This document shows positions 16-53,899 of a stretch of DNA of 64,000 bases, piece after piece. The number at the start of each line of letters is the position of its first letter. Position 1 is the stretch's first letter. Below the pieces are notes generated by a model, which made no database searches, was not told the origin of the DNA, and saw only the letters and a list, made by a program, of their open reading frames with translations. Origin of the DNA: Agromyces ramosus (GTDB lineage Bacteria; Actinomycetota; Actinomycetes; Actinomycetales; Microbacteriaceae); contig NZ_SGWY01000003.1 in the NCBI RefSeq assembly GCF_004216665.1, forward strand, positions 372,001 to 436,000. Direction: 5' to 3'. The position numbers and the translations under genes were made by a program.

Positions 16-36
16 ATGTTCCACTCGACGGGACAT
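16..36. promoter_or_regulatory. candidate IclR-type operator upstream of dctP
   Basis: An imperfect 21-bp inverted repeat has arms ATGTTCCA and CGGGACAT around CTCGA; 6 of 8 positions pair. Read on the minus strand it contains TCCC-N5-GTGGAACAT, and it matches the dyad upstream of the second IclR pair (8331-8347) at 13 of 18 positions. It lies about 180 bp upstream of the transporter gene. That an IclR regulator binds here is inference from the shared sequence. Confidence 0.45.
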
Positions 37-214
37 GGCTTTGCGAACCGATCGAAGTCCGTCAGAGTCGGCACTGCCACCGGGCCGTAACCTGACAGCG
101 TGGTCGACGAGGATCTCGCCCCGTGCGAGCGGTGTCGACCGGATGTCGCGCTCCGGCCATCGAATGTCACGTCAGAGCTCGCACGAGGACGTGCGCAAAC
201 AAGAGGAGAGTCCC

Positions 215-1273
215 ATGGGCACAGCCCGCTCGACGCGCCGAGGCCGAATCGCCGCGTCGGTGCTCGCAGCAACCACCCTCGTCGTCACCGGCTGTGCCGG
301 AGGCGGCGGCGCTCCCGAAGAGACCGGCGACGCGGGCGCGTCTGAGAACAAGCCCGTCACACTCAGTGTGGCGACGAGCCAGAACGAGCAGACGCCGAAC
401 TACTTCTGCGGCGTCGAGCTGCTGAAGGAGCGCCTGGAGGAGGCCGACATCGGCTTCACCGTCGACCTGTATCCGGCCAGTCAGCTCGGACCGGACGCCG
501 ACCGCTTCCCGCAGGTCCAGGCAGGTGACATCGACATCGACCTGCAGGGTGCATCCGCGCTCAGTGCCACGTACGAGCCGATCGGCGTCGTGGATGCCGC
601 GTACGCGTTCAACGACGTGGACCACGCGTTCGAGTGGATCGATGAGAGCTCGGAGGACCTGTTCTCGGGCTTCCACGAGGCCACGGGTGTCAACATCGTC
701 GACGGCTGGTACTTCGGCAACCGTACCTTCACGACCAAGGACGTCGAGGTGCACGGCCCCGAGGACCTGGCGGGCGTGCCCATCCGGTTCCCGAACTCCC
801 CGATCTTCCTCGCGAACGCGGAGGCGCTCGGTGTGACCAACCCCGTCTCGGTTGCGGTGGAGGAGGTCTACACCGCCCTGCAGCAGGGGATCGCCGTGGG
901 CCAGGAGAACCCCATCGTCGCGACGCGCTCGTCGAGCTACGACGAGGTCCTGAACACCGCGATCCTCAACGACCACAACGTCGGCATCCACTGGATCCTC
1001 GTCAGCGACAAGACGTACGAGAAGATGAGCGAGGAGCAGACGGCACTGCTCGAGGAGACGATCCACGAGATCCGCCCCGAGAACCGCGAGTGCGTCGATG
1101 AGGCGACCGAGGAGATCCTCGACGAGTACCGCGCGAACGACGCGTTCACGGTGATCGAGCAGGAGGACATCGACATGGATGCCTTCATCGGCCAGGCGGA
1201 GGAGTACTTCGAGGGATACTTCACCGGCGAGAACCTCGAGGCCTACCAGGCCATCCGCGAGACCGCCGGCTGA
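215..1273 (+). CDS. dctP: TRAP transporter solute-binding lipoprotein (DctP family)
   Basis: This extracytoplasmic receptor of a tripartite ATP-independent transporter binds an organic acid and hands it to membrane subunits. The 352-residue protein starts with a basic region, a hydrophobic stretch and a lipobox ending VVTGC (Cys27), so it should be a membrane-anchored lipoprotein. The rest follows the DctP fold, including the motif around LAGVPIRFPNSP. The ATG at 215 was chosen because AAGAGGAGAG lies 5 nt upstream; the open frame reaches back to 35 without signal-peptide sense. No DctQ/DctM membrane genes follow; they may lie upstream of the window or elsewhere. The neighbouring shikimate genes suggest shikimate, quinate or a similar acid as ligand, which is inference. 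Confidence 0.88.
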   Translation: MGTARSTRRGRIAASVLAATTLVVTGCAGGGGAPEETGDAGASENKPVTLSVATSQNEQTPNYFCGVELLKERLEEADIGFTVDLYPASQLGPDADRFPQVQAGDIDIDLQGASALSATYEPIGVVDAAYAFNDVDHAFEWIDESSEDLFSGFHEATGVNIVDGWYFGNRTFTTKDVEVHGPEDLAGVPIRFPNSPIFLANAEALGVTNPVSVAVEEVYTALQQGIAVGQENPIVATRSSSYDEVLNTAILNDHNVGIHWILVSDKTYEKMSEEQTALLEETIHEIRPENRECVDEATEEILDEYRANDAFTVIEQEDIDMDAFIGQAEEYFEGYFTGENLEAYQAIRETAG

Positions 1274-1340: not shown

Positions 1341-2105
1341 TCAGTGCTGGCCTGCGGCGGCGATCCGACGACTCAGCGTGATGGCCGCGGCATGAACGGC
1401 CGGCGCGATGCGATCCGGAACCACGTTCGAGACCGAGCCGGTCGCGGAGATCGCGGCGATGGGCGCCCCGCCTTGGCCGAGGATCGCGCTCGCCGCGCAG
1501 GCGCGGCCGTTCACGCTCTCCTCCTTCTCGGTCGCCACCCCGAGCCTGCGGATGTCCACCAACTCGCGCAGGAACGCCGACGGTTCGGAGACGGAGTGCC
1601 GCGTGTGCACGTCCGGTCGACCCTGGATGATGCGCCCGACGACATCTTCTGGAGCGAACGCCAGGATGGCCTTTCCGAGCGCCGTCGCGTGCGCGGGGAG
1701 GCGGCCGCCGATCCTCGCCAGCGGGGTGCAGGTGGGCTCTCCGTGCACGATCGCGACGAAGACCACGTCGGCGCCGTCGAGAACAGCGAGGTTCACCGTT
1801 TGACCGGTCGCGTCGCGCAGCTCGGTCATCACGGGGAGCGCGAAGTGGCGAAGCCTTCGCGGCTGCTCGACGCTCTGGGCCAGCTCGAAGAGGCGGACAC
1901 CGAGAAAGAGCCTGTCGCCGTCGCGGTCGAGGAAACGCTGCGCGACGAGGTCGGCGGCGATCCTCGAGACCGTGGACTTCGGAAGGTTGGCGCGCCGGGC
2001 CAGCTCCGAGACTCCCAGCCCTTCGTCGTGCTCGCCGAACGCGTCGAAGACGGCCGTCACACGGTCGAGCACGCTGACCGACTCGGTCCAGTCGGCGGTC
2101 CGCAT
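1341..2105 (-). CDS. IclR-family transcriptional regulator (downstream member of pair 1)
   Basis: A 254-residue IclR protein: an N-terminal winged helix-turn-helix around residues 10-70 (GLGVSELARRANLPKSTVSR) and a C-terminal effector-binding domain with the typical GGRLPAHATALGKAILAF stretch. It follows the second IclR gene after only 3 nt, so the two are co-transcribed. It resembles the 6755-7525 gene much more than its own operon neighbour, sharing the run SVLDR/GVLDR, LGxSELAxRAxLPKSTVSR and EQPRxLRxxALPVMxxLR. IclR regulators of aromatic catabolism usually respond to a pathway intermediate; the effector here is unknown. Confidence 0.88.
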   Translation of the reverse strand: MRTADWTESVSVLDRVTAVFDAFGEHDEGLGVSELARRANLPKSTVSRIAADLVAQRFLDRDGDRLFLGVRLFELAQSVEQPRRLRHFALPVMTELRDATGQTVNLAVLDGADVVFVAIVHGEPTCTPLARIGGRLPAHATALGKAILAFAPEDVVGRIIQGRPDVHTRHSVSEPSAFLRELVDIRRLGVATEKEESVNGRACAASAILGQGGAPIAAISATGSVSNVVPDRIAPAVHAAAITLSRRIAAAGQH

Positions 2106-2108
2106 GTC

Positions 2109-2867
2109 TCACGCAGCCGAGAGTCGACGACTGACGGACGTGCCTGCGGCACGCACCAAGGGCGCGACGCGATCCGGGTCCATCGCTCCGCTGGGACCGG
2201 CGATGGAGATCGCGCCCAGCACGATGCGGTCACCCGAGAGCACGGGACTCGCGACCGCGAGGATGCCGGGGTACGAGACCTCCAGGTCCGTCGCCACGAC
2301 CGCAGCGCGCACGTGAGTGAGCTCGTCGCGGAACCGGTCGGCGGCGGTGTCGATGAGCGGCGCACTCACGCGGTCCACGACGCCCTGGTCGGCGCAGAAG
2401 GCGAGGTAGGCCTTGCCGCTGGCGGTCGTCAGTGCGGGCGAGTGCATGCCGGCGCGGGTGGGGAGCATCGGAAGGCGGCCGGCGACGGCGGCGATCGACA
2501 CCATGTCCGTCCCCTGCTGGACCCAGAGCCCGACGCGTTCTCCCGTGATATCCCGGAGTTGCCGGATGACGGGCGCCGCGGCGGTGAGGAGCCGGCGAGG
2601 GAGGCTCGCGCGGGCACCGAGCTCCCAGAGACGGAGCCCGAGCGTCACGCCGTCGTCCGTGCGCTCCAGGTAACGCTGGCCGGTCAGCTCCGCGACGAGG
2701 CGCGAGACGGTGGATTTCGGCAGGTCGGTGCGCATCGAGAGATCGGTGATCGAGATCGAGCCGCCGGATTCCTTCACCGCGTCGAGGATCGCGATCATGC
2801 GACCGAGCACGGAGACCGGTGCGCCCGAGGGAGCGGGGATCGTGTTCCATTCGGCGAGACTCGTCAT
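2109..2867 (-). CDS. IclR-family transcriptional regulator (upstream member of pair 1)
   Basis: A 252-residue IclR regulator with HTH residues TDLPKSTVSRLVAELTGQRY and an effector domain. The ATG at 2867 is preceded by GGAAGGGG at SD spacing; the open frame extends to 3065 but the extra residues look like non-coding translation. It is transcribed divergently from the dehydratase operon and directly upstream of the other IclR gene. Its closest relative in the window is the 7529-8269 gene (shared PVSVL, IPKSTVSR/LPKSTVSR, LELGARAS-PRRL). It is well placed to control the divergent 3002 operon and itself. Confidence 0.88.
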   Translation of the reverse strand: MTSLAEWNTIPAPSGAPVSVLGRMIAILDAVKESGGSISITDLSMRTDLPKSTVSRLVAELTGQRYLERTDDGVTLGLRLWELGARASLPRRLLTAAAPVIRQLRDITGERVGLWVQQGTDMVSIAAVAGRLPMLPTRAGMHSPALTTASGKAYLAFCADQGVVDRVSAPLIDTAADRFRDELTHVRAAVVATDLEVSYPGILAVASPVLSGDRIVLGAISIAGPSGAMDPDRVAPLVRAAGTSVSRRLSAA

Positions 2868-2878
2868 CGAGTATCCCC

Positions 2879-2893
2879 TTCCAGCGGCTTGAA
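2879..2893. promoter_or_regulatory. possible IclR half-site dyad TTCCA-N5-TTGAA
   Basis: The dyad TTCCA-GCGGC-TTGAA lies just upstream of the start of the 2109-2867 IclR gene and overlaps its ribosome binding site. It differs at one position from the TTCCA-N5-TGGAA pattern found upstream of pobA. Autoregulation would be the natural role. Short motif, so modest confidence. Confidence 0.3.
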
Positions 2894-2922
2894 TCGTCGT
2901 CGATCGCCCTTCGACTTCGAAC

Positions 2923-2936
2923 GTACTAGTTAGTAC
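2923..2936. promoter_or_regulatory. palindrome in divergent promoter region
   Basis: The 14-bp palindrome GTACTA-GT-TAGTAC is AT-rich against a GC-rich background. It sits midway between the divergent IclR pair and the dehydratase operon, so it probably overlaps promoter elements of one or both. It is unlike the TTCCA-type dyads, and might serve the operon-encoded TetR regulator (6074-6748), which is inference. Confidence 0.4.
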
Positions 2937-3001
2937 AGATCCATGCAATGCTGTTCCGAGAAACCCGCGGGTACCATCGCCGGTGGCCGCAGAAAGGCGC
3001 C

Positions 3002-4849
3002 ATGCGCACATCGATCGCCACGGTCTGCCTGAGCGGCACACTCGATCAGAAGCTCGTCGCGGCACACGAGGCGGGATTCGATGGAGTCGAGGTATTCGAG
3101 CCGGATCTGGTGGCCTCCCCCCGGTCGCCTGAGGCGATCCGCGCGCGAGCCGAGCAGCTCGGGCTGTCGCTCGACCTGTACCAGCCCTTTCGCGATTTCG
3201 AGGGCGTCGGCCCCGAACTCCTCGAGCAGAACCTTCGTCGAGCGGCGGCGAAGTTCGCCCTCATGAATCGCCTGGGCATCGCGACCATGCTGCTGTGCAG
3301 CAATGTCGCGACGGCCCGCAGCGGGGATGAGCAGCTCGCCGCGGTCCAATTGCGGCAACTGGGGGACGTCGCCGACCGCTTCGGTGTTCGCATCGCCTAC
3401 GAGGCGCTCGCCTGGGGCCGATTCGTCGACAGCTATGAAGCGGCCGCCCGAATCGTGCGCCTCGCCGACCATCCACGCGTGGGCCTGTGCCTGGACAGCT
3501 TCCACATCCTGTCGAAGGGGCATGATCCCGAGGCGATCGAGACCATACCCGCCGACTCGATCTTCTTCGTCCAGATGGCCGACGCCCCACTCCTCTCGAT
3601 GGACGTGCTCTCGTGGAGCCGGCACCACCGCCTCTTCCCAGGCGAGGGCGGCTTCGACCTCGGGACCTTCATGGCGCACCTCGTCCGCACGGGCTACGAC
3701 GGTCCCGTCTCGCTCGAGGTCTTCAACGACACGTTCCGCCAGGTCGATCCGCTCGCTACGGCGGTCGAGGCCCGACGCTCACTGCGCTGGCTCGAGCATG
3801 TGACGGCCCTGTCCTTGGGCTCCGCTGCCGGCGGCGGCGCCGCTCGGATGTCGACCGCCTCGCTTCCGGCCGTCGCGCCGCCTGCCGACGTGAACTACGT
3901 GGAGTTGCGAACCGGCGAGCTGCAGGAGCTCAGGCGCCTCCTCATGCAGTTGGGCTTCCGCTCCCATGGAGAGCACCGGACCAAGCGCGTCGAGCTGTGG
4001 TCGCATGGGGCCGCTCGGGTCGTGATCGGAGCGCCGGACTCCGAGCACGTGCAGCCGACGGTGGCCGGCATCGGCCTCTCGGTGAGGGATCCGGCCACCG
4101 CATTGCGACGGGCGAAGGACCTCTTCGCGTCCGAGGTTCCCCGGGACGAGCGACCAGGCGAAGAACCGCTCCTCGGTGTTCGAGCTCCCGACGGGTCGGA
4201 GGTGTTCTTCGGCGCCGAGGGGGCAACGGAGCCGAGATGGGTGAGTGAGTTCGGCATTCCCGGACACGATGACCCGCACCTGATCGAACGTGTCGATCAC
4301 GTCAACCTCGCCCAGCCCTGGCAGCGCTTCGATGCCGCGGTGCTCTTCTTCCACTCGGTGCTCGATCTCGGCGCCGAGGCATCGATCGACGTGGCCGCAC
4401 CGGTGGGCCTCGTACGCAGCCAGGTCCTTCGCAGTGCCGACGGAATCCTGCGAATCGCCCTGAACCTGGTGCCCTCAGGAGCCAGCGACGATGCGATCCT
4501 CCCGCAGCACATCGCCTTCGCGTCCTCCGATGTCATCGCGCTCGCCCGAGGGGCGCGCGAGCGCGGCTTCGAACCGCTCGACATCCCCGGCAACTACTAC
4601 GACGATGTCGAGGCGCGCTACCAGCTCGAACCCGGCCTCATGGAGGAGCTCAGGGAACTGAACGTCATGTACGACCGGGACGAGGACGGGGAGTTCCTGC
4701 ACTTCTATACCCATCCCATCGGGACCGTGTTCCTCGAGGTCGTCGAGCGACGTGGAGGATACGCCGGATATGGCGCGCTCAACGCGCCCGTCCGGCTCGC
4801 TGCCCAGTACGAGCATCGCCGCGTCGCAAGTCAGGGAGCTCCCGCGTGA
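3002..4849 (+). CDS. qsuB: two-domain 3-dehydroshikimate dehydratase (QsuB-like)
   Basis: Converts 3-dehydroshikimate to protocatechuate. The 615-residue protein has an N-terminal sugar-phosphate isomerase-like TIM barrel (about 1-275) and a C-terminal hydroxyphenylpyruvate dioxygenase-like domain (about 295-600). In the barrel the metal-ligand pattern of this family is present: Glu134 (YEALAWG), Asp165 (LDSFH), Gln191 (VQMAD), Glu239 (SLEVFND). The C-terminal domain keeps the dioxygenase metal motifs DHVN, QHIAF and FLEVVERR. Start ATG 3002 follows AGAAAGG; the upstream frame to 2948 is intergenic. First gene of a four-gene operon with GTGA/ATGA overlaps. A plain HPPD is excluded by the N-terminal barrel. 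Confidence 0.88.
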   Translation: MRTSIATVCLSGTLDQKLVAAHEAGFDGVEVFEPDLVASPRSPEAIRARAEQLGLSLDLYQPFRDFEGVGPELLEQNLRRAAAKFALMNRLGIATMLLCSNVATARSGDEQLAAVQLRQLGDVADRFGVRIAYEALAWGRFVDSYEAAARIVRLADHPRVGLCLDSFHILSKGHDPEAIETIPADSIFFVQMADAPLLSMDVLSWSRHHRLFPGEGGFDLGTFMAHLVRTGYDGPVSLEVFNDTFRQVDPLATAVEARRSLRWLEHVTALSLGSAAGGGAARMSTASLPAVAPPADVNYVELRTGELQELRRLLMQLGFRSHGEHRTKRVELWSHGAARVVIGAPDSEHVQPTVAGIGLSVRDPATALRRAKDLFASEVPRDERPGEEPLLGVRAPDGSEVFFGAEGATEPRWVSEFGIPGHDDPHLIERVDHVNLAQPWQRFDAAVLFFHSVLDLGAEASIDVAAPVGLVRSQVLRSADGILRIALNLVPSGASDDAILPQHIAFASSDVIALARGARERGFEPLDIPGNYYDDVEARYQLEPGLMEELRELNVMYDRDEDGEFLHFYTHPIGTVFLEVVERRGGYAGYGALNAPVRLAAQYEHRRVASQGAPA

Positions 4850-5148
4850 TCCGACACGTCGCCGTCTTTCGATTCGTCCCCGAGTTCACGACCGAGCATC
4901 GGGAGCACTGGATGGCGCTCGTGCGGGCCCTGCCGGACCGGATCCCCCAACTGCGCAGCATGACCGTCGGTGCGGACGTGCTGCGTGGCCCGGCGTCGTA
5001 CGAGCTCGCGATCGTCGCCGACTTCGATGATCTCGACGGCTTGGAGGCCTACACGCGGCATCCGGCACACGCCGAGGTGCTGAGGATCTCCGCACCGGTG
5101 AAGGCATCGCTTGCGACGGTCGACTTCGAGATCCCGGATGCGTCGTGA
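4846..5148 (+). CDS. Dabb-domain (stress-responsive alpha/beta barrel) protein
   Basis: A 100-residue protein with the dimeric alpha/beta-barrel fold of the Dabb family: an early IRHVAVFRF strand and a closing VDFEI strand. Such proteins occur as small enzymes or accessory proteins in catabolic operons; no specific reaction can be assigned. The GTG start overlaps the stop of the dehydratase gene (GTGA), and its own stop overlaps the next GTG, so it is translationally coupled on both sides and very likely works in the same pathway. Confidence 0.8.
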   Translation: MIRHVAVFRFVPEFTTEHREHWMALVRALPDRIPQLRSMTVGADVLRGPASYELAIVADFDDLDGLEAYTRHPAHAEVLRISAPVKASLATVDFEIPDAS

Positions 5149-6077
5149 CCGATCAGATGCGAGCCCCCGGATCTCCTCCCGGGCCGCGGCCCGGACCGTT
5201 CCTCGTCGGCCTGATCGGCGAAGGCATCGGAGCATCGTTGACCCCGGCGATGCATGAAGCGGAGGCCACGCAGATGGGACTCGACTACGAGTACCGCATC
5301 TTCGACCTCATCGAGCTCGGCCGGCCAGCCGGCGACGTCGGAGCGATACTCGCCGAGGCGAGGGCCGACGGCTTCACGGCGATGAACATCACCCACCCCT
5401 GCAAGCAGCTCGTCCTCGAACTCGTCGATGAGCTGGACGCGGATGCCGCACACCTCGGAGCGGTGAACCTCGTGGTGTTCGACGACGACCGCCTGGTCGG
5501 GTACAACACGGATTGGATGGGGTATCGCGACGGTCTCACGACGGGCCTGCCGGGAGCGTCGTTCGAGCGCGTCGTGCAGATCGGCTGCGGCGGCGCGGGC
5601 GCTGCGACCGCATACGCGCTCCTGACGAAGGGCGCGGAGCGGCTCGAGCTGTCGGACGTCGACGACACTCGCGCGGAGGATCTCGCCGCCCGGATGCGCG
5701 CCCATTTCCCGACGCAGACCATCGTGACGCTCGAGCCGGGCGACCTTCCCCAGGCCATCGCCCGCGCAAGCGGCGTCGTCCATGCGACACCGTTGGGGAT
5801 GCTCCACCATCCGGGGACGGCGTTCGACCTCGACCTGCTGCGGGAGGGAGCCTGGGTGTCGGATGTCGTGTACCGACCGCTCGAGACGGATCTCGTGCGG
5901 CAGGCGGCCGAGCGAGGGCATGCCGTGCTCGACGGCGGTCGGATGGCCGTGGGCCAGGCATGCGCTAGTCTCCGAATCATCACGGGCATGCTGCCCGATC
6001 GTGACCGGATGCAACGGCACTTCCGTGCGCTCATCAGCGCTGAGGAGCAGTTCGGCGCTGGAGGGGGCCAACAATGA
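5145..6077 (+). CDS. shikimate/quinate dehydrogenase family protein (AroE-like, catabolic type)
   Basis: Predicted to oxidise shikimate (or quinate) to 3-dehydroshikimate (or 3-dehydroquinate), feeding the dehydratase encoded just upstream. The 310 residues show the substrate-binding SLTPAMHE motif, the catalytic lysine in NITHPCKQ (Lys87), the NTD motif (121-123), a nucleotide-binding GCGGAGAAT loop (147-155) and the C-terminal GGRMAVGQA. The GTG start overlaps the preceding stop. The operon context argues for a catabolic QsuD-like role rather than biosynthetic AroE. A dehydroquinate dehydratase is not in this cluster, so growth on quinate would need one from elsewhere. Confidence 0.85.
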   Translation: MTDQMRAPGSPPGPRPGPFLVGLIGEGIGASLTPAMHEAEATQMGLDYEYRIFDLIELGRPAGDVGAILAEARADGFTAMNITHPCKQLVLELVDELDADAAHLGAVNLVVFDDDRLVGYNTDWMGYRDGLTTGLPGASFERVVQIGCGGAGAATAYALLTKGAERLELSDVDDTRAEDLAARMRAHFPTQTIVTLEPGDLPQAIARASGVVHATPLGMLHHPGTAFDLDLLREGAWVSDVVYRPLETDLVRQAAERGHAVLDGGRMAVGQACASLRIITGMLPDRDRMQRHFRALISAEEQFGAGGGQQ

Positions 6078-6748
6078 GCGAGCGGTTGAGCGAGGTCAGC
6101 GACAGCGGGATGACCGAGCGTGCCATCCGGACCCAGGGCGACATCCTCGAGGTCGCCACCGCCGAGTTCGCAGCGAACGGCTACGCGGGTGCGCGGGTCG
6201 ACGAGATCGCCGCCCGCACGCGCACGACGAAGCGCATGATCTACTACTACTTCGGCTCGAAGGAGGGGCTCTACCTCGCGGTCCTGGAACGCGTGTACGC
6301 GCAGATCCGACGGGTCGAGCGCGGCATCCACATCGACGAGATGTCACCGGACGAGGCGCTGCGCACGCTCGCGGAGGCGACGTACGACCACCACACGACG
6401 CACGAGGAATTCATCCAGCTCGTCAGCATCGAGAACATCCATCGGGCCGAGCATCTGCGTCAGTCGCAGACGATCCTGCGCGAGAACGTCACGGCCATCA
6501 CCCTGCTCGAGCAGGTCATCGAGCGAGGTGTGCGTGAGGGCATCTTCCGCGACGATGTCGATGCGCTGGACGTGCACATGGTGATCAGCGCCTACGCGTG
6601 CTTCCATGTGGCCAACCGGCACACGTTCGCTGCCATCTTCGATCGGGACATGCTCGACCCCGCGCTCCAGGAATCGCACCGACGACTCATCGGCGACATG
6701 ATCGTCGCCACGATGACGGATCGTCGCAGCGCCGGAGGCGAGCGCTGA
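6074..6748 (+). CDS. TetR-family transcriptional regulator
   Basis: A 224-residue TetR protein with an N-terminal HTH (about residues 20-65; ARVDEIAARTRTTKRMIYYYFGSKEGLY) and a helical ligand domain. Its ATG overlaps the stop of the dehydrogenase gene (ATGA), making it the last gene of the operon and so probably a local feedback regulator. The residues around IYYYFGSKE are typical of TetR regulators of aromatic or fatty acid catabolism. The ligand is unknown; the palindrome at 2923-2936 is a possible site. Confidence 0.86.
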   Translation: MSERLSEVSDSGMTERAIRTQGDILEVATAEFAANGYAGARVDEIAARTRTTKRMIYYYFGSKEGLYLAVLERVYAQIRRVERGIHIDEMSPDEALRTLAEATYDHHTTHEEFIQLVSIENIHRAEHLRQSQTILRENVTAITLLEQVIERGVREGIFRDDVDALDVHMVISAYACFHVANRHTFAAIFDRDMLDPALQESHRRLIGDMIVATMTDRRSAGGER

Positions 6749-6754
6749 GGGGCG

Positions 6755-7525
6755 TCAGACCGCCCTCGACCCGCCCGGGGCCAGGCGACGCGTGAGCATC
6801 AGCGCAGCAGCCCGGATGGCCGGAGCGAACCGGTCGGCATCGAATCCGTCCGCGCATCCCGAGACCGACACCGCCCCGACGAGCCTGCCCGAGGGCGCGA
6901 ACACCGCGCTCGCCGCGCAGGACACGCCGGCCCCGAATTCCCCGACCTCGGTCGCGAGTCCGCCCCCTCGGATGTCGTCGAGCTGACGGCACAGCACCGC
7001 CGGATCGCGGATCGTGTGGGCCGTCCATGCCTCGAGTCCTGCGGCGACGACCTCCTCGACGTCGGCAGCGGGTGCGTGCGCGAGCACGGCCTTCCCCAGC
7101 GCGGTGGCGTGGATGGGGAGCCGCCCGCCGATGCGGACGGTCGGCGGTGCTGCGAAGCGACCGCGCATGACGGCGATGCAGACCATCTCGCGCCGGTCGC
7201 GGATGGCCAGGTGCACGTTCTCCCCCGTCGTGGTGCGAAGGTCGGCCATCACCGGCAGGGCGGCGGCCCTGAGCTCCCGCGGCTGCTCGGCGAGCTGCCC
7301 GAGCTCGAAGAGCCGCAGGCCCAGATGGATCCGCTTCCCATCGCGCTCGAGGTATCTCTGCCGCACGAGCGTCGCGACCAGCCGGGAGACCGTGGACTTG
7401 GGAAGGCCGGCGCGCAGCGCGAGCTCGGAGATGCCCAATCCCCGGTCGTCCTGGTCGAAGGCCTCGAGGATGGAGGTCATGCGGTCGAGGACGCCGAGCG
7501 CGTCGCCTGCGGCAGCGTCGCGCAT
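6755..7525 (-). CDS. IclR-family transcriptional regulator (downstream member of pair 2)
   Basis: A 256-residue IclR protein with HTH residues GLGISELALRAGLPKSTVSR and an effector domain containing GGRLPIHATALGKAVLAH. It lies 3 nt downstream of the 7529-8269 gene, exactly the spacing seen in pair 1, and resembles the downstream member of that pair (1341-2105). It converges with the TetR gene, with only 6 nt between the stops. Two IclR proteins expressed together may form heteromers, which is inference. Confidence 0.87.
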   Translation of the reverse strand: MRDAAAGDALGVLDRMTSILEAFDQDDRGLGISELALRAGLPKSTVSRLVATLVRQRYLERDGKRIHLGLRLFELGQLAEQPRELRAAALPVMADLRTTTGENVHLAIRDRREMVCIAVMRGRFAAPPTVRIGGRLPIHATALGKAVLAHAPAADVEEVVAAGLEAWTAHTIRDPAVLCRQLDDIRGGGLATEVGEFGAGVSCAASAVFAPSGRLVGAVSVSGCADGFDADRFAPAIRAAALMLTRRLAPGGSRAV

Positions 7526-7528
7526 GGA

Positions 7529-8269
7529 TCACGCCACCTGCAGTGCCAGCCGGTGCGTGAGGGCGAGCGCCGCGTGCCGCACCAGCGGCATCATCCGGTT
7601 CGCGTCCATGTTCGTCACCGGGCCCGCGACGGAGATCGCGGCGACCGGCAGCCGTTCCGGTGACAGGACCGGGCTTGCCACCCCGACCACTCCGGGGAAC
7701 GTCTCGCAGCGGTCGACGGCGACGGATTCCGTGCGAACCGTGGCGAGCTCCCGTTCGAGCATGTGACGCCGCTGGGGGTCGAGGCCGGCCATCACGCTGG
7801 CGAGGATGGACTCGTCGCTCGTGAATGCGAGGACCGCCTTGCCGAGCGCGGTCGTCGCCGAAGGCACTCGGACTCCCGCCCGGGACGGGACCGGTCGCAA
7901 CCGGCCCCGCACCGAGATCACCGAGAGCATGTCACGCCCCTCCTGAACCGCGACGTTCAGGTGCTCGCCGGTCGCGTTGAACAGCTCGGCCAGCACCGGC
8001 AGTGCCGCGATGCTGAGGCGCCGCGGGGTGCTGGCGCGCGCTCCGAGCTCGAAGAGCCTCAGGCCGATCACGACTCCGTCTTCGGCGCGCGTCAGGTATC
8101 GCTGCCGGATGAGGTCGCCGACGAGCCGTGACACGGTGGATTTCGGGATGCCGGTGGCCAGCGCGAGCTGGGTGATCGTGGTCGTGCCGTGCGACTCGCG
8201 GACCGTGTCGAGGATGGCGAGGATCCTGTCGAGCACGGACACCGGCTCGTCTCTGAGAGCGGATCGCAT
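7529..8269 (-). CDS. IclR-family transcriptional regulator (upstream member of pair 2)
   Basis: A 246-residue IclR protein (HTH ATGIPKSTVSRLVGDLIRQR) most similar in the window to the 2109-2867 gene. Start ATG 8269 is preferred over upstream in-frame starts near 8329: a possible -10 element GATACT ends 6 nt before it, the spacing of the many leaderless genes here, and the dyad at 8331-8347 would otherwise lie at the start codon. It is the first gene of the second IclR pair. Confidence 0.85.
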   Translation of the reverse strand: MRSALRDEPVSVLDRILAILDTVRESHGTTTITQLALATGIPKSTVSRLVGDLIRQRYLTRAEDGVVIGLRLFELGARASTPRRLSIAALPVLAELFNATGEHLNVAVQEGRDMLSVISVRGRLRPVPSRAGVRVPSATTALGKAVLAFTSDESILASVMAGLDPQRRHMLERELATVRTESVAVDRCETFPGVVGVASPVLSPERLPVAAISVAGPVTNMDANRMMPLVRHAALALTHRLALQVA

Positions 8270-8330: not shown

Positions 8331-8347
8331 GTCCCACTCACTGGAAC
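8331..8347. promoter_or_regulatory. IclR-type dyad upstream of regulator pair 2
   Basis: GTCCCA-CTCAC-TGGAAC is a near-perfect inverted repeat (5 of 6 pairs) followed by AT. It lies about 60 bp upstream of the start of the first IclR gene, a usual position for IclR-family binding. It shares TCCC...A.TGGAACAT with the dyad upstream of dctP. Confidence 0.5.
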
Positions 8348-8454: not shown

Positions 8455-9417
8455 TCAGGCCGCGCAGAACGGCTTGATGCCCATGGCGCTTTCGAGGCCC
8501 CCCAGCACGTGCTGCTTGAAGAACTCGTCGCCCGCCAGCGGAGCATCGGTCCAGGCAGCAGCGTCGTGACCGAGCGTCGTCAGCCACGCCCGACCGCCGT
8601 CGTAGTACTGGCACCAGCTCACGGGGTGGGATTCGCCGTGGCCGGCCGGGGTCGCCTCGCTCGTGGCCTGGTCGACCTCGAGCAGCACGTTGACGAAGCT
8701 GGGATACGGCACCAGGTTGTACCACTCGTCCTTGAACGCCCACGTCTCCGGCAGGAACGACGTCGAGACGTCGTTGCGGTTGATGGTCTCGACCGTTCCG
8801 TCGCGGTTCGGTCCGTGGTTGTAGAAGTTCGCTCCGCCCAACAGGCCTTCGTAGTACGGCCAGTGGTACTCGGCTCCGAACGCGTTGTGGATGCCGACGA
8901 AGCCGCCGCCGCCGCGGATGTACTGCATGAGCGTCGTCTGCGCCGAGTCGTCCAGCGTGTCGCGGTTGGAACTCAGGAACACGACCGCCTGGTAGTTGTT
9001 CAGGCGGAACTGCGAGAGGTCCTCGGTGTAGTCGGCTGCGATCCCTCGCTCCGCCGCCCAGGCGATGAGGGCGGCCTGGGCGATGTTGTTGGCGTTCAGC
9101 GGCGGGTTCAACCCCGGTGCCAGCGGCGTGCCGAGGTGGGCGTGGCGCGGACCCGCGGTGCGGCTCCAGATGAGGATGCGCTTCGGCTCATCCGCGGTCC
9201 AGCCGTTGCCCCATTCGTTGTAGCAGGCGGGATCGGCACCGCGGCACACGCCGTAATCCTTGATCTCGTCGAGGTAGATCTGGCTGGCGGTCGCGGGCTG
9301 TCCGGAGAGTCCGTTCCCGGGGTCCTTGTCATTCAAGGCCGTTCCCCCGACCGCCATGCCCGCGCCGAGCGCTGCCGCGGCGACGAGGGCGACTCCCGAG
9401 CGTATGAGCGATTTCAT
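8455..9417 (-). CDS. secreted ThuA-domain protein
   Basis: A 320-residue protein with an N-terminal signal peptide (about residues 1-27, MKSLIRS then an Ala-rich core) and a ThuA-like class I glutamine-amidotransferase-fold domain from about residue 75. The domain motif IHNAFGAEYHWPYYEG is visible. ThuA-type domains are linked to sugar utilisation, but the reaction of secreted members is not established. Start ATG 9417 is preceded by AAAGGAG. It stands alone, on the strand opposite to the propeller gene. Confidence 0.78.
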   Translation of the reverse strand: MKSLIRSGVALVAAAALGAGMAVGGTALNDKDPGNGLSGQPATASQIYLDEIKDYGVCRGADPACYNEWGNGWTADEPKRILIWSRTAGPRHAHLGTPLAPGLNPPLNANNIAQAALIAWAAERGIAADYTEDLSQFRLNNYQAVVFLSSNRDTLDDSAQTTLMQYIRGGGGFVGIHNAFGAEYHWPYYEGLLGGANFYNHGPNRDGTVETINRNDVSTSFLPETWAFKDEWYNLVPYPSFVNVLLEVDQATSEATPAGHGESHPVSWCQYYDGGRAWLTTLGHDAAAWTDAPLAGDEFFKQHVLGGLESAMGIKPFCAA

Positions 9418-9707
9418 GTGATCTCCTTTGATCGTTCGTGCTGATGCCTCGGGTGCGCCAAGCGCGATCGGCCCGGGGGTGGTGTGAATCTAGGCGTCCC
9501 CGAAGCCGGCGGGCAAAGCTCGTTCCACCCAGTAAGCCGGCCGGGTCCTGCAGCCCGTGAGATCCGTTTCAGGCGCTCGCCAGGGGTGGATCGGTCGGCT
9601 CTCGCCTGGGCGACGAACCTGCGTCGATGGCCGTCGCCCGTCTCAGTGGATGGATCCGGGATGGACACGGACGTCGGACGTGCCCTTCACTGGAGAGCGG
9701 AGGCGCG

Positions 9708-12303: not shown

Positions 12304-13506
12304 TCAGCGCAGTGAACGGAACGCAGCCCTCAGTTCATCGGTGAAGAGTCCTGGTTCCTCCCAGGCGGCGAAGTGGCCGCCCCTGTCGGCCTCGCTGAAG
12401 TAGGCGAGGTCGGGATAGACCGCTTCGACCCAGCTCCGGGGGGAGGCCCAGATCTCACCAGGGAATGTCGTGAAGCCGACCGGCACGCTCACCGGCGGCG
12501 GCGCCTGCCCGCTCGCCAGCGATGCGGCCAGTGCTCGTGCGTCCTCCCAGTACGACCGTGCCGCCGAGTCCGCCGTGCCGGTCAGCCAGTACAGGGTGAT
12601 GTTGTCCAGGATGTGGTCCCGCGTGAGATTGCCCACCGGCGCGTGGTCGACGAAGGCGCGGGTGATCTTGTAATAGCTGTCCGTGTCGTGGTCGAGCATC
12701 CAGCCCGCCAGCCCGACGGGTGAATCCAGCAGGGAGTAGCTGATCGTCTGCGGTCGCGTCGCCATCTCGAGGAAGTAGCCGAAGCCGTCCTCGCGGAACG
12801 TCCCGAAGGCCGTGGCCGCGGCCCGTTCCTGTTCGGATTCCCTGGGCAGGTGATCACCGACCGCGAGCGCCGCGGTGAGCAGGTTCAGGTGGTACCCGGC
12901 GAGGCCCTCGACCGCCTGCCGGCCCATCAGATCCGTGACCAGCGCACCCACGTCACCGCCCTGGGCGACGTAACGGGTGTAGCCGAGGCGGCGCATCAGC
13001 TCCGCCCACGCACGAGCGGTGCGGGCGGAGTCCCACCCGAGCTCGGTCGGCTCACTCGAGAACCCGTAACCGGGCAACGACGGCAGCACCAGGTGGAATG
13101 CGTCGTCGGCGGTGCCGCCGTGCGCGGTCGGGTCGGTCAGCGGGCCGACGGTCTCCAGCAGCTCGATCACCGAGCCGGGCCAACCGTGCGACATGATCAG
13201 CGGCAACGCGTTCTCATGCGGCGACCTGACGTGGATGAAGTGGACCTGCACCCCGTCGATCTCGGTCGTGAACTGCGGCAACGCGTTCAGCTTCGCCTCG
13301 CACCGCCGCCAGTCGTACTCGTCCGTCCAGTACCGGGCCAGCTCCTGCAACGTCGCGAGCTGCACCCCCTGAGAGCGATCCGAAACCAGCTCTTGGGTGG
13401 GCCAGCGCGTCGCAGACACCCGCCGACGCAGATCATCCAGCCGCTCCCCGGGGATCTCGACCTGGAACGACTGGATTTCCGACGTGGTACCGATGGTGTT
13501 GCTCAT
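12304..13506 (-). CDS. epoxide hydrolase (alpha/beta hydrolase with EHN domain)
   Basis: Hydrolyses an epoxide to a diol. The 400-residue protein begins with the epoxide hydrolase N-terminal region, then the oxyanion motif HGWPGS (107-112), the nucleophilic aspartate in GGDVG (Asp185) and the late histidine in GGHFAAWEEP. Tyrosines in the cap are candidates for epoxide activation. GAGGAG precedes the ATG. First gene of an operon with the oxidoreductase and AhpD-like genes, suggesting detoxification of an epoxide and its products. Confidence 0.85.
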   Translation of the reverse strand: MSNTIGTTSEIQSFQVEIPGERLDDLRRRVSATRWPTQELVSDRSQGVQLATLQELARYWTDEYDWRRCEAKLNALPQFTTEIDGVQVHFIHVRSPHENALPLIMSHGWPGSVIELLETVGPLTDPTAHGGTADDAFHLVLPSLPGYGFSSEPTELGWDSARTARAWAELMRRLGYTRYVAQGGDVGALVTDLMGRQAVEGLAGYHLNLLTAALAVGDHLPRESEQERAAATAFGTFREDGFGYFLEMATRPQTISYSLLDSPVGLAGWMLDHDTDSYYKITRAFVDHAPVGNLTRDHILDNITLYWLTGTADSAARSYWEDARALAASLASGQAPPPVSVPVGFTTFPGEIWASPRSWVEAVYPDLAYFSEADRGGHFAAWEEPGLFTDELRAAFRSLR

Positions 13507-13935
13507 GATGTCTCCTCAAGCGCAGCGGCCTGAAGGCACCACCGATCCCAGTCGTGGAGAGGTCCGGCTCATGCCAGGCCGCAGGGGTGGTTTGGGATCT
13601 CGCTTCGCGCGACCTGAGGGGTCGATGACCTCGCCAAGGGTACTCTCCTGCTCCGCATCTCGCACCCGTCGAAGGCCCGACTGCTGGGGACCCCGAGTCC
13701 GTCGGAGTCCTCGTGCGCTTCGCCGAACTCATCGGCCCCGCCGGACACTCATTGCCCCGCCGCACGAGTCCGGGCCGGGCTGAGCGACTCCTCGCCAGAG
13801 GATCGGCGACTCATCGGGTAGGGCGGCCCCAGGTTCCGACGGGCGCTCCTCCGGGCCGATGCTGATCCAGATCTCGATGGGGTCGGGCGCGCCGACCGAC
13901 CACGTGCTTCCAGCCTCCGGCGCGGGGATGGGGCG
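13507..13935. other. intergenic region without recognised gene
   Basis: About 430 bases between the divergent epoxide hydrolase and glycosyltransferase operons. Several frames are open here on both strands, but none has a convincing start, codon bias or family match. One minus-strand frame ending near 13731 contains protein-like stretches such as IEIWISIGPEERP, but it has no credible start before running antisense into the glycosyltransferase. No terminator or repeat was seen. Confidence 0.5.
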
Positions 13936-13941
13936 TAGTGT
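13936..13941 (+). promoter_or_regulatory. -10 element (leaderless) of the glycan operon
   Basis: TAGTGT ends exactly 6 nt before the GTG at 13948. The same spacing recurs at many genes of this window and implies a transcript starting at or next to the start codon. Confidence 0.45.
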
Positions 13942-13947
13942 CGCAGC

Positions 13948-14091
13948 GTGACGAGAACAGCTCCAGCGCGGCTCGGCGGGGACACGTTTCGTCGTGCTCG
14001 GTGTGCCGATCGCAGGAGTGCTCGAGCCGGTGACTCCATCGTGATGGCCGAGATCGGTGCCGGCGCGCGGCGCGAGCGGCCCCGGCGATGA
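13948..14091 (+). CDS. possible small leader protein (47 aa)
   Basis: A small open frame starts with GTG 6 nt after TAGTGT and ends in a TGA overlapping the ATG of the first glycosyltransferase (ATGA). Promoter spacing and coupling suggest it is translated. The Arg/Ala-rich product resembles no known family, so it may serve mainly to couple translation of the downstream gene. It could also be chance. Confidence 0.35.
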   Translation: MTRTAPARLGGDTFRRARCADRRSARAGDSIVMAEIGAGARRERPRR

Positions 14092-15122
14092 GGGTGGCGA
14101 TGCTCGGCCCGATCGCGTGGCGCACGCCGCCGCGGCACTACGGCCCGTGGGAGCGGGTGACGAGCCTGCTCACCGAGGGGCTCGTGCGCCGGGGCGTCGA
14201 CGTCACCCTCTTCGCGACGGCCGACTCGCGGACGTCGGCGACGCTCGAGTCGGTGGCTCCGCATGGCTATGCCGAGGACGCCGACATGGACGGCCGGGTA
14301 TGGGAGGCACTGCACATCGCGCATGCGATGGACCTCTCGTCGGGGTTCGACCTCGTGCACAACCAGCTCGACTGGCTTCCGCTCGCCTTCGGCGCCCAGT
14401 GGGGTGCGCCGATGGTCACGACGATCCATGGCTTCTCGGGTGACGCGATCCTCCCTGCCTATGAGCGGGCGCGTTCGACGTTCGTCTCGATCTCGGACGC
14501 CGACCGCTCGCCCGCCCTCACCTACGCGGCGACGGTGCAGCACGGCATCGACATGGCCGAGTTCGACACGCCGGATGTCGCCACGACGGCGACGGCGCGC
14601 GACGACCTCGTCGTCTTCGGCCGCATCCACCCCGACAAGGGCATCGCTGACGCGATCGAGATCGCCGCCCGCGTGGGGCGTCGACTCGTCATCTGCGGAA
14701 TCGTGCAGGATGCCGCGTACTTCGCGGATCAGGTCGAACCACGCGTCGACGGTGACCGCGTCGTGTATCGCGGATCGGTGGGCCCCGAGGAGCGGACCGA
14801 GGTGCTTGCGTCGGCAGCAGTGCTGCTGCATCCGATCCACTTCGCCGAGCCGTTCGGCCTCTCGGTCATCGAAGCCATGGCATGCGGAACACCCGTCGTC
14901 GCCTTCCGACGAGGTTCGATGCCCGAGGTGGTCGAGGACGGCTTGACGGGGTTCGTCGTCGATGGTGTCGCCGAGGCCGTCGAGGCGGTGCCTCGCGCCG
15001 CCGCCCTCGACCGCACCGCCGTGCGGCGGCGAGCGCGCGAGCGCTTCGACGTGGAGCGCATGGTCGACGGCTATCTCGAGGTGTACCGCACCGTGCTCGG
15101 ACGAACGGGGAGGCTCGCATAG
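14088..15122 (+). CDS. GT4-family glycosyltransferase
   Basis: A 344-residue GT-B retaining glycosyltransferase. The N-terminal domain has MRVAMLGPIAWRTPP and a Rossmann pattern; the C-terminal donor domain has FGRIHPDKGIADAIEIA and the EPFGLSVIEAMACGTPVVAF motif that binds the nucleotide sugar. First clear gene of a four-gene set with another GT4, an alpha-barrel-like protein and a GH130 enzyme. Donor and acceptor are unknown; mannosyl or glucosyl transfer would suit the GH130 neighbour. Confidence 0.85.
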   Translation: MRVAMLGPIAWRTPPRHYGPWERVTSLLTEGLVRRGVDVTLFATADSRTSATLESVAPHGYAEDADMDGRVWEALHIAHAMDLSSGFDLVHNQLDWLPLAFGAQWGAPMVTTIHGFSGDAILPAYERARSTFVSISDADRSPALTYAATVQHGIDMAEFDTPDVATTATARDDLVVFGRIHPDKGIADAIEIAARVGRRLVICGIVQDAAYFADQVEPRVDGDRVVYRGSVGPEERTEVLASAAVLLHPIHFAEPFGLSVIEAMACGTPVVAFRRGSMPEVVEDGLTGFVVDGVAEAVEAVPRAAALDRTAVRRRARERFDVERMVDGYLEVYRTVLGRTGRLA

Positions 15123-22743: not shown

Positions 22744-23522
22744 CAGGCGTCCCTCCTCGGACGGGTGGTGACCTTCTCGATGGGCAGGTCGGCGGACTCC
22801 TCCGGACTCAGCACGACGATGCGGTCCACGTAGATGCCCGGCAGGTGGATGTCGTCGGGATCGAGCACGCCCGGTTCCACGAGCTCGTCGACCTCGGCGA
22901 TGGTGAACCGGCCGGCCATGCCCGCGAGCGGGTTGAAGTTGCGCGCGGCCTTCTCGAACCGCAGGTTGCCGTGCCGGTCGCCGACGGCGGCCCGCACGAG
23001 GCCCACGTCGGTGCGGATCGCGCGTTCGAGCACGTACTCGCGCGTGCGGCCGAACGCGTCGAAGGGGCGCAGCTCCTTGGGGTCGCTCGCGAGCGCCACG
23101 GAGCCGTCCGCCGCGTACCGGATCGGCATGCCGCCGTCGGACACCGCGGTGCCCGCGCCGGTGGCGGTGTAGAACGCCGGGATGCCGACGCCGCCCGCGC
23201 GGAGCCGTTCGGCGAGGGTGCCCTGCGGGGTGAGCTCGACCTCGACCTCGCCGCCGAGGTACTGGCGGGCGAACTCCCTGTTCTCGCCGATGTACGACGC
23301 GATCACGCGCCGGATGCGACCGGCGGCCAGCAGTTCGCCGAGGCCCCAGCCGTCGACGCCGCAGTTGTTCGAGACCACCTCGAGGTCGCGGGTGCCCTGC
23401 GCGAGCAGCGCCCGGATCAGCACGATCGGCACCCCCGACAGCCCGAACCCGCCGACGGCGAGCGATGCGCCGTCGGGGATGTCGGCGACCGCCTCGGTCG
23501 CGCTCGCGTACGTCTTATCCAT
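22743..23522 (-). CDS. pcaI: 3-oxoadipate CoA-transferase subunit A
   Basis: Alpha subunit of the CoA-transferase, 259 residues, with GGFGLSGVP in the CoA-binding loop and the [12 protein letters not shown] stretch. Start ATG 23522 is preceded by GAGGAG; an unrelated open frame continues to 23945 antisense to coding sequence of pcaL. Start overlaps the pcaL stop by 8 nt. Confidence 0.9.
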
Positions 23523-24738
23523 CGGTCTCCTCGGCGTGGGTCTCTTCGGTGAACACCTCGCGCGCGATGGCGAGGGCGGTGTTGGCCGCCGGCAGGCCGG
23601 CGTAGAGGGCGGTGTGCAGGATGACCTCGGTGATCTCGGCACGCTCGAGCCCGTTGCGCCGGGCGGCCCGAACGTGCATCCGGATCTCGGCCTCGTGGCC
23701 GCCCGTGACGAGGCTCGCGAGCGTGGCGATCGAGCGCTCGCGTCGCGACAGGTCGGGACGCGACCAGATCTCGCCCCACGCGTAGCGGGTGATGAAGTCC
23801 TGGAACGGCGCGGTCTCGGGAGTGGCGGCCGCGACGGCGGCGTCGACGTGGGCGTCGCCGAGCACGGCACGGCGCACGGCCATGCCGCGGGTCGCGGCGT
23901 CGGCCGGCGCGGCGGGGTCGCCCTCGGAGGCGCCGGTCGCGGCATCCGTCGACGCCACCCGTTCGGCGATGAGCGCGGCTACCTCGTCGGGCCGGTCGAG
24001 CGGCGGCAGGTGCGCCGAGCCGGCGAGCTCGACGAACCGCGCACCCGGCACCTCGGCGGCGAGCGCGCGCATCGCCTCAGTCGTGGTGACCCCGTCGTGC
24101 TCGCCCGCGACGAAGAGCGCGGGCACCGCCAGCCCGGTGGCCTCCACGGTGCGATCGAACCCGCCGAGTGCCTCGCAGCAGCGTGCATAGGACTCGTCGT
24201 CGACGTCGACGAGCAGGCGCAGCGCGCGCCCGCCCGGTCCGTCGGGCTCCCGCTCGAGGTAGCCGGGAGCGAACCAGCGCTGCGCGCTGCCCCCGACGAG
24301 CGACGCCGTGCCCGACGCCCGCACGCTCGCGGCCCGCTCGGCCCAGCCCTCGGCGGTGCCGATGCGGGCCCCGCTCGCCAGCATCGTGAGGCTCGCGATC
24401 CGGTCGGATGCCGCGACCGCGAGCTCGAGCGCGATGACGCCGCCGAGGGAGTCGCCGGCGACGTGGAAGCGTCCCCCGCCCACCTCGTCGACCACGCGCA
24501 GCACGCCCTCGGCGAGCTCGGGGATCGTGAGCGGATCGCGGGCGACCGGGCTGGCGCCGTGTCCGGGGAGATCGACCCGGAGGATCCGCACGGCGGGGAG
24601 CGTCGGACGCAGCGCCGCGACGACGCGGTCCCACAGCTCGGTGGTGGTGCCGAGCGAGGGCAGCAGCACGAGGAGCTCGGTCGCGTCGGCCGTCGGAGCC
24701 GCCGCGGTCACCGATCCGGTGAGGCGGGGAACGGTCAT
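23515..24738 (-). CDS. pcaL: fused 3-oxoadipate enol-lactonase / 4-carboxymuconolactone decarboxylase
   Basis: One 407-residue protein carries two successive steps. The N-terminal alpha/beta hydrolase (about 15-265) is PcaD-like with nucleophile Ser97 in AGDSLGG and a late GSAHLPPL histidine. The C-terminal part (about 290-400) is the PcaC decarboxylase with RYAWGEIWSRPDLSRRERS. The fusion, known as PcaL, occurs in actinobacteria. ATG 24738 overlaps the pcaB stop (ATGA). Confidence 0.9.
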   Translation of the reverse strand: MTVPRLTGSVTAAAPTADATELLVLLPSLGTTTELWDRVVAALRPTLPAVRILRVDLPGHGASPVARDPLTIPELAEGVLRVVDEVGGGRFHVAGDSLGGVIALELAVAASDRIASLTMLASGARIGTAEGWAERAASVRASGTASLVGGSAQRWFAPGYLEREPDGPGGRALRLLVDVDDESYARCCEALGGFDRTVEATGLAVPALFVAGEHDGVTTTEAMRALAAEVPGARFVELAGSAHLPPLDRPDEVAALIAERVASTDAATGASEGDPAAPADAATRGMAVRRAVLGDAHVDAAVAAATPETAPFQDFITRYAWGEIWSRPDLSRRERSIATLASLVTGGHEAEIRMHVRAARRNGLERAEITEVILHTALYAGLPAANTALAIAREVFTEETHAEETDG

Positions 24739-27374: not shown

Positions 27375-27408
27375 GGTGCTCCTCGGGTGGACGGGGGTGC
27401 GGGTCGAC

Positions 27409-28593: not shown

Positions 28594-28665
28594 GGATGCC
28601 GCCTCTTTCGCGTCGCTGGGAGGATGGGTCGATCCTCGCCTTTCCCCCGCCGCGCCGGGGCGCGA

Positions 28666-28682: not shown

Positions 28683-28700
28683 AATCGGACGGTCGCGGCG

Positions 28701-53852: not shown

Positions 53853-53899
53853 GACCACTCCTCACGTCGGCGCCGCCGGGACGCGGCGCATCTGCTGCG

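What the first reader, a model, noticed from the sequence alone, without database searches (positions are those of the whole stretch)
1341..8269. Duplicated two-gene IclR module flanking a shikimate catabolic operon
Four IclR genes form two pairs. Within each pair the genes are separated by exactly 3 bp, and each member resembles its counterpart in the other pair more than its neighbour. So a two-gene regulator unit, not single genes, was duplicated. One pair is divergent from the QsuB/Dabb/SDH/TetR operon, the other convergent to it. With the TetR gene, five regulators serve three enzyme-type genes and one transporter gene. Obligate IclR pairs suggest heteromeric regulators or two-signal logic, which I do not know to be described.
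Basis: partly seen in the sequence, partly recalled or inferred. Interest (0 to 1): 0.72.

Follow-up and report, generated by a model that had tools for sequence, protein, structure and literature searches.

The report
Duplicated obligate IclR regulator pair
In soil bacteria of the Agromyces/Microbacterium group, two sister regulator genes are kept side by side as a two-part switch for a predicted plant-acid (shikimate/quinate) eating gene cluster; one partner keeps its DNA-reading part and lets its sensing part decay while the other keeps its sensing part, which suggests a regulator split between two different subunits.

Summary
Observation confirmed. A1/B1 (1341-2867) and A2/B2 (6755-8269) are co-directional IclR pairs with 3-bp gaps; A1/A2 are 49%, B1/B2 50%, A/B 40-43% identical. 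In a tree with 49 pairs, A1, A2, B1 and B2 each form supported groups. Every one of the 49 distinct B-type genes found has an A gene directly downstream.

New: (1) A keeps its DNA-binding domain while its effector domain decays (identity .48-.50, against .73-.77 in B); 9 of 49 A's but 0 of 49 B's lost part of it. (2) One 17-bp IclR-type operator precedes the quinoprotein, TRAP, QsuB/B1, ThuA and B2 genes. (3) Pair 1 adjoins DctP; pair 2 adjoins ThuA and in three genomes lies far from the operon. (4) TetR has a separate candidate palindrome before QsuB.

Best reading: a two-subunit IclR regulator, B sensing and A reading DNA, duplicated as a unit over a predicted shikimate/quinate cluster. Heteromer formation is inferred, not shown. 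A lone shortened relative in one genome weakens the truncation argument.

The parts
1341..2105 (-). A1: IclR-type regulator, DNA-reader-like member of pair 1 (254 aa)
   Evidence: Pfam HTH_IclR + IclR_C; A1 clade 27 rows 98/91; AlphaFold model pLDDT 82 with IclR fold
2109..2867 (-). B1: IclR-type regulator, sensor-like member of pair 1 (252 aa); first codons MTSLAEWN overlap an operator-like site
   Evidence: Pfam; B1 clade 27 rows 100/99; site overlap
2844..2860 (+). Operator-like site GTTCCATTCGGCGAGAC, inside the B1 5' coding region and facing QsuB
   Evidence: PWM 26.9 bits; the full pattern without mismatch occurs at 3 places in the genome, all in this cluster
2919..2936 (.). Candidate TetR operator GAACGTACTAGTTAGTAC (palindrome GTACTAGTTAGTAC at 2923-2936) between B1 and QsuB
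   Evidence: single site in the 3.84 Mb genome at up to 2 mismatches, control 0; presence follows TetR in relatives with stated exceptions
3002..4849 (+). QsuB-like 3-dehydroshikimate dehydratase (TIM barrel plus HPPD/VOC-like half)
   Evidence: Pfam AP_endonuc_2, Glyoxalase; NCBIfam QuiC 531 bits, below the cut-off of 1200
4846..5148 (+). Dabb (stress-responsive A/B barrel) protein
   Evidence: Pfam PF07876
5145..6077 (+). Shikimate/quinate dehydrogenase (AroE/QsuD type)
   Evidence: NCBIfam NF009201 373 bits, cut-off 235
6074..6748 (+). TetR-type regulator, last gene of the operon
   Evidence: Pfam TetR_N, TetR_C_29
6755..7525 (-). A2: IclR-type regulator, DNA-reader-like member of pair 2 (256 aa)
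   Evidence: Pfam; A2 clade 22 rows 100/99
7529..8269 (-). B2: IclR-type regulator, sensor-like member of pair 2 (246 aa)
   Evidence: Pfam; B2 clade 22 rows 100/96
8331..8347 (.). Operator-like site upstream of B2 (GTTCCAGTGAGTGGGAC, read towards B2)
   Evidence: at -79/-78 or -58/-57 of B2 in the 22 class-2 pairs
8455..9417 (-). ThuA-domain protein, upstream of and co-directional with pair 2
   Evidence: Pfam PF06283; directly upstream of B2 in 20 of 22 class-2 pairs, and interrupted by an insert in a 21st
9522..9538 (+). Operator-like site GTTCCACCCAGTAAGCC upstream of ThuA
18..34 (+). Operator-like site GTTCCACTCGACGGGAC between DctP and the divergent GFO-type oxidoreductase gene
35..1273 (+). 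DctP, substrate-binding protein of a TRAP transporter (the true start is probably the ATG at 215, behind GAGGAG)
   Evidence: Pfam PF03480; start codon; convergent neighbour of A1 in 26 of 27 class-1 pairs

Best explanation
Each pair encodes one two-subunit IclR-type regulator. B and A are made from one message in near-equal amounts and assemble, as a heterodimer or mixed tetramer, on 17-bp IclR-type operators. B carries the working effector pocket and senses a pathway compound; A mainly contributes DNA binding, and its own sensor is dispensable. A tandem duplication of a singly encoded, self-regulated IclR gene gave B-A, and the B-A unit was then copied. Pair 1 controls the TRAP/oxidoreductase, quinoprotein and QsuB promoters and its own; pair 2 controls ThuA and its own promoter; the sites are similar enough for cross-talk. 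TetR acts on the QsuB operon through a separate palindrome. Shown: pairing, phylogeny, domain-wise constraint, conserved sites. Inferred: physical heteromer, which subunit senses, which pair acts on which site, the ligand and the sign of regulation.
For: Each of 49 distinct B genes has A directly downstream. B monophyletic 100/100; A as one clade not rejected (AU p 0.498); A1, A2, B1, B2 each supported. Mean identity over the same genome pairs, class 1: DNA-binding domain A .79 B .69, effector domain A .48 B .73; class 2.82/.80 and .50/.77. With A's of 238 aa or more only, effector A<B in 253 of 253 and 136 of 136 comparisons. Single-gene controls.79/.76 over 19 PcaR-like orthologues.54/.50 over 12 sister singles. 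dN/dS: effector domain A > B in 12 of 12 comparisons; DNA-binding domain A lower than B in 10 of 12, one tie, one higher. 9 of 49 A's are 183-221 aa, 5 changes on the tree, against 0 of 49 B's; the model of a short A keeps the sheet core and last helix. Shared 17-bp operator-like site at the cluster's promoters.
Against: No physical interaction is shown; only monomers could be modelled. IclR homodimers can bind imperfect sites (asymmetry of TtgV is noted in PMC8222616, passage). The asymmetry of sites is not universal: B2's own site is near-palindromic (mean 5.95 of 8). A singly encoded relative outside the A clade, in G180, is itself shortened to 226 aa, so a shortened effector domain does not require a partner. 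B's own constraint is close to that of single IclRs; only A is unusual. Another IclR tandem pair of the family (L171, L172) has two full-length members.
Confidence: 0.5

Rival explanations
1. A and B are separate homo-oligomeric regulators that compete for the same operators: B is the inducible one, and A is an ordinary or nearly constitutive competitor that sets a threshold.
For: The recognition region PKSTVSR is nearly the same in A and B, and one operator type serves the whole cluster. The IclR structures matched in the PDB carry single-regulator names.
Against: Does not by itself explain why B was never found without A (49 of 49) or why the genes lie within a few bases of each other.
Confidence: 0.3
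2. A is a redundant copy on its way out; pairing is a historical remnant.
For: The effector domain of A decays, and the tree needs five changes for its shortening.
Against: A's DNA-binding domain is under strong purifying selection (dN/dS 0-0.26, under 0.1 in 11 of 12 comparisons), and an A open frame is kept in all 49 pairs, across several genera.
Confidence: 0.12
3. Two-signal logic: A and B each sense a different compound, and A's effector domain changes quickly because its ligand differs between species.
For: 40 of 49 A's are 238 aa or longer; dN/dS in A's effector domain is at most 0.50.
Against: Repeated loss of two helices of A's effector domain fits loss of sensing better than a change of ligand.
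Confidence: 0.08

Closest known systems
IclR-family regulators (PcaR/PcaU/PobR, BhcR, TtgV, E. coli IclR)
   Same: HTH_IclR plus IclR_C domains, IclR fold; operator-like sites fit the published group 1 motif GKTYCRYW3-4RYGRAMC (PMC8222616, passages read)
   Different: PDB relatives are listed under single-regulator names; these come as a pair of diverged paralogues with unequal domain constraint. NCBIfam scores of A1 and B1 are far below the equivalog and subfamily cut-offs
PafBC of mycobacteria (WYL family)
   Same: Described as heterodimeric, encoded by two genes in one operon (starts of abstracts in the listings: PMC11804915, PMC5656591)
   Different: Different protein family and function (DNA-damage response); no homology is claimed here
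Other tandem IclR pair in Microbacteriaceae (L171 in G118, L172 in G091)
   Same: Two IclR genes adjacent on one strand, seen in two genomes
   Different: Gaps 29 and 22 bp, both members full length; not close to A or B by eye, not placed in the tree
qsu/qui shikimate-quinate catabolic clusters (for example Corynebacterium qsu; recalled)
   Same: QsuB/QuiC-like dehydratase, dehydroquinase, shikimate dehydrogenase
   Different: Here with a TRAP transporter, a quinoprotein dehydrogenase, ThuA, a TetR gene and two IclR pairs

Membership tests
IclR family of transcription regulators | N-terminal HTH_IclR and C-terminal IclR_C above curated cut-offs | tested here: met
   All four proteins
IclR family of transcription regulators | IclR fold | tested here: met
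   A1 model against PDB: best hits are IclR entries (7cuo, 7dqb, 2g7u), best E 1.4e-22; the short A of L122 also. B was matched by sequence only
IclR family of transcription regulators | Operator of a known IclR motif type | tested here: met
   GTTCCACTGAGCGGAAC-type sites fit group 1 of PMC8222616; comparison by eye, binding not tested
Named NCBIfam groups PcaR/PcaU/PobR, BhcR, IclR, KdgR, AllR | Score above the NCBIfam cut-off | tested here: not met
   A1 136.6 bits to BhcR (cut-off 350), 121 to PcaR/PcaU/PobR (285); B1 71 bits at best; A2 and B2 not scanned
Heteromeric two-gene regulator (works like PafBC) | Two adjacent paralogous regulator genes, never apart | tested here: met
   49 of 49 distinct B genes. 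A-profile search of 396 family genomes: hits over 260 bits are either A's of pairs or singles already placed outside the clade; the one doubtful partial hit, G180, is a sister single. Weaker hits were not all placed
Heteromeric two-gene regulator (works like PafBC) | Physical A-B complex | not testable with these tools
   Only monomer predictions were available
Shikimate/quinate catabolic cluster | Dehydroquinase, dehydroshikimate dehydratase and quinate/shikimate dehydrogenase together | tested here: inconclusive
   AroQ above two NCBIfam subfamily cut-offs and the shikimate dehydrogenase above NF009201's; the QuiC-like protein scores 531 bits, below the cut-off of 1200; growth on the substrates not tested

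The most novel reading that the evidence does not exclude
The first heteromeric IclR regulator: a sensor subunit (B) and a DNA-reading subunit (A) that arose by tandem duplication, divided the two domains' jobs between them, and were then duplicated again as a unit to run two neighbouring regulons.
Probability: 0.45. Interest if true: 0.65.

Novelty: new variant of a known kind. Interest (0 to 1): 0.5.

Why it matters
IclR proteins are a large bacterial regulator family described as binding DNA as dimers or tetramers (PMC8222616, passage), and are generally treated as homomers (recalled). A conserved pair in which one paralogue loses sensing while the other keeps it would be a clean natural case of subfunctionalisation of a one-component regulator, with 49 sequence pairs, shortened variants and candidate operators ready for testing. 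It also defines a predicted regulon for shikimate/quinate use in Agromyces and Microbacterium.

Tried and rejected
Considered and rejected or left open: (a) pair duplication as two separate gene duplications: class 1 stays with class 1 and class 2 with class 2 in all 49 pairs. (b) Both pairs serving the same operon: pair 2 is unlinked from it in G206, G300 and G096. (c) The short A's as frameshifts: in seven of the nine the frame runs on into conserved C-terminal motifs; two (L119, L095) also lack the last strands and may be degenerate. (d) Single-pair loci L121/L122 (ThuA-B-A-DctP) as the ancestral state: their A and B fall inside class 1, so loss of pair 2 is as likely. (e) Exact 3-bp spacing as a signature: only 21 of 49.

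Results against or limiting the reading: G180 has a lone, shortened (226 aa) TRAP-linked IclR outside the A/B clade. Operator asymmetry holds for the DctQ, DctP, B1 and ThuA sites but not for B2's own. The motif matrix was trained on these same loci, so its scores are circular; position and cross-species identity are the evidence. At up to 2 mismatches the genome has 102 pattern hits against 49 for the reversed control, so weak sites mean little. The tandem-pair control (60 genomes) printed only its best-scoring matches, so the two other IclR tandems seen are a lower bound; a third candidate (L173) has a 442-bp gap. The 12 dN/dS comparisons reuse some genomes and are not independent. The genome-contig scan used two peptide patterns and kept the best 80 of 159 relatives; the family and phylum searches scored at most 6 candidates a genome. 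The sister-single control held one sequence twice; one search repeats it without. In one search, hits under about 260 bits were not all placed in a tree. A as one clade appears in 27% of 200 bootstrap trees and 12% in the smaller tree. The substrate is inferred from enzymes only.

Literature: the searches listed no heteromeric IclR pair. One search found 2,173 papers, of which the 15 listed do not hold the word IclR, so it says nothing. Searches asked about shikimate/TRAP and about PafBC. Absence in this open-access library is not proof.
Full report
Observation. Within each pair B is upstream, A downstream, with TGA-NNN-ATG junctions. All four have both IclR domains. A1/A2 and B1/B2 are 49% and 50% identical, A/B 40-43%. 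The genome holds 8 IclR_C matches; the window's fifth IclR, at about 28.7 kb, is a different, singly encoded PcaR-like gene beside pca-type genes (the pca names are recalled).

Surroundings. Just outside the window lie a PQQ-type quinoprotein dehydrogenase, DctQ, DctM and a type II 3-dehydroquinate dehydratase on the + strand, and a flavoprotein and a GFO-type oxidoreductase on the - strand. With DctP, the QsuB-like protein, Dabb, shikimate dehydrogenase and ThuA this is a predicted uptake and breakdown cluster for shikimate/quinate-type compounds. AroQ passes two NCBIfam subfamily cut-offs and the dehydrogenase passes NF009201's; the QsuB-like protein and the quinoprotein pass none.

Distribution. 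Searches of 398 family genomes and 396 phylum genomes added five genera of the same family; their hits in another family scored only 161-167 bits, not B-type. The named-genome scan gave 25 B-type loci (L101-L125) in Agromyces, Microbacterium, Leifsonia, Mycetocola, Frigoribacterium, Occultella (Ruaniaceae by the tree's labels) and one contig labelled Mycobacterium. After removing 2 duplicate pairs of 51 there are 49 distinct A-B pairs. In all 49, A follows B directly, gap -4 to +19 bp, 3 bp in 21. A search with the A profile in 396 family genomes gave one doubtful case, G180; its gene proved to be a lone shortened IclR outside the A/B clade.

Phylogeny. In a tree of 138 proteins (49 A, 49 B, 40 single), A+B stand together (99/93), B is one clade (100/100), and A1 (27), A2 (22), B1 (27), B2 (22) are each supported. 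A as one clade is not rejected (p-AU 0.498), though only 27% of 200 bootstrap trees show it. No pair mixes classes. So a tandem duplication most likely made B-A, and the unit was then duplicated. The nearest relatives are encoded singly, including TRAP-linked ones in G096, G180 and G209.

Which genes go with which pair. DctP is the convergent neighbour of A1 in 26 of 27 class-1 pairs; the remaining one (L109) is at a contig end. ThuA is directly upstream of B2 in 20 of 22 class-2 pairs; in L048 it lies there too but is interrupted by an insert of about 1.5 kb, and in L049 it is some 7 kb away. In G206, G300 and G096 pair 2 sits with ThuA and a quinoprotein gene, far from the TRAP locus. Pair 2 is therefore not simply a second regulator of the shikimate operon.

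Division of labour. Comparing the same genome pairs, A's DNA-binding domain is as conserved as B's or more so (class 1.79 against .69; class 2.82 against .80), while A's effector domain is far less conserved (.48 against .73.50 against .77). Leaving out A's under 238 aa, the effector-domain difference holds in 253 of 253 and 136 of 136 comparisons, and A's DNA-binding domain is the more conserved in 249 of 253 and 100 of 136. Singly encoded IclRs show near-equal values for the two domains.79/.76 (19 PcaR-like) and .54/.50 (12 sister singles). So A is the unusual one; B is close to a normal IclR, with its DNA-binding domain somewhat the laxer in class 1. dN/dS in the effector domain is higher in A in 12 of 12 comparisons (A .16-.50, B .02-.18); in the DNA-binding domain A is lower in 10, tied in 1 and higher in 1. 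Nine of 49 A's are 183-221 aa long, no B is (243-255), and the tree needs five changes. The lost part corresponds to helices 153-161 and 175-188 of the A1 model; the model of the short A from L122 keeps the sheet core and the last helix. Where the effector pocket lies in this fold is recalled, not computed.

Operators. Upstream regions share a 17-bp IclR-type site, fitting the group 1 motif of PMC8222616 (abstract and passages seen). Sites precede the quinoprotein gene (in this genome 173 and 235 bp before its likely start), DctQ, DctP/GFO, B1/QsuB, ThuA and B2. The pattern GTYCCAYTSRNYGRGAC occurs without mismatch three times in 3.84 Mb, all in this cluster. In B1 the site lies inside the first codons, which would explain the constant MTSLAEWN start; the 17-mer is identical in 14 of 27 B1 genes. 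In 7 singly encoded relatives a significant site begins at +4 of their own reading frame. DctQ, B1, DctP and ThuA sites are asymmetric (means 3.95 over 21 sites, 3.56 over 27, 4.11 over 19, 3.25 over 12, of 8 symmetric positions; three of the 27 B1 values come from loci without a convincing site), quinoprotein sites intermediate (4.8 over 5), B2's own sites are not asymmetric (5.95 over 22), and the 14 of 29 single-gene starts with a significant site average about 5.4. This suits different subunits on the two half-sites at some promoters but is not decisive.

TetR. A palindrome GTACTAGTTAGTAC before QsuB is unique in the genome. It, or a one-base variant, is present in 21 of the 24 TetR-bearing loci scanned (missing in L116, L119 and in L123, whose contig ends inside SDH) and absent from the other 7 loci, of which L125 holds only a cut end of a TetR gene. 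This suggests that TetR has its own operator, separate from the IclR sites.

Mechanism and rivals. The most likely reading is a two-subunit regulator with B as sensor and A as DNA reader (0.5). Independent competing homo-oligomers (0.3), a decaying copy (0.12) and two-signal logic (0.08) remain. PafBC is the nearest known case of how it would work (starts of abstracts in search listings only). No heteromeric IclR was listed in the searches.

Noticed in passing
L171 (G118:C1:992000-998000) and L172 (G091:C16:46500-51500): Another IclR tandem pair (gaps 29 and 22 bp) is present in two other Microbacteriaceae genomes, both members full length; the two pairs look orthologous by eye.
   Followed up: partly
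window 23515-29456: Genes that look like a protocatechuate (pca) operon with its own single PcaR-like IclR at 28701-29456, about 14 kb beyond ThuA: a likely outlet for the cluster's product. The pca names are recalled.
   Followed up: no
L009 324-1592 (upstream of the window): A second TIM-barrel protein matching QsuB at 48% identity (202 bits), in a region that also holds an aldehyde dehydrogenase-type gene.
   Followed up: no
L123 (JAQSXQ010000345.1, 1-3922): A contig labelled Mycobacterium carries ThuA, B2, A2, TetR and SDH; its B2 and A2 group with those of two Microbacterium loci (L112, L115), so it is probably misbinned.
   Followed up: partly
L048 about 12611-14092 (G046): The ThuA gene upstream of B2 is interrupted by an insert of about 1.5 kb in one Agromyces genome.
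   Followed up: no
window 53457-54880: Three tandem small (133-145 aa) membrane-protein-like paralogues in a row on the - strand (by eye).
   Followed up: no
L204 8995-9675 (G180): A lone, shortened (226 aa) IclR between DctP and a shikimate dehydrogenase, outside the A/B clade: a natural test of whether a shortened IclR works alone.
   Followed up: yes
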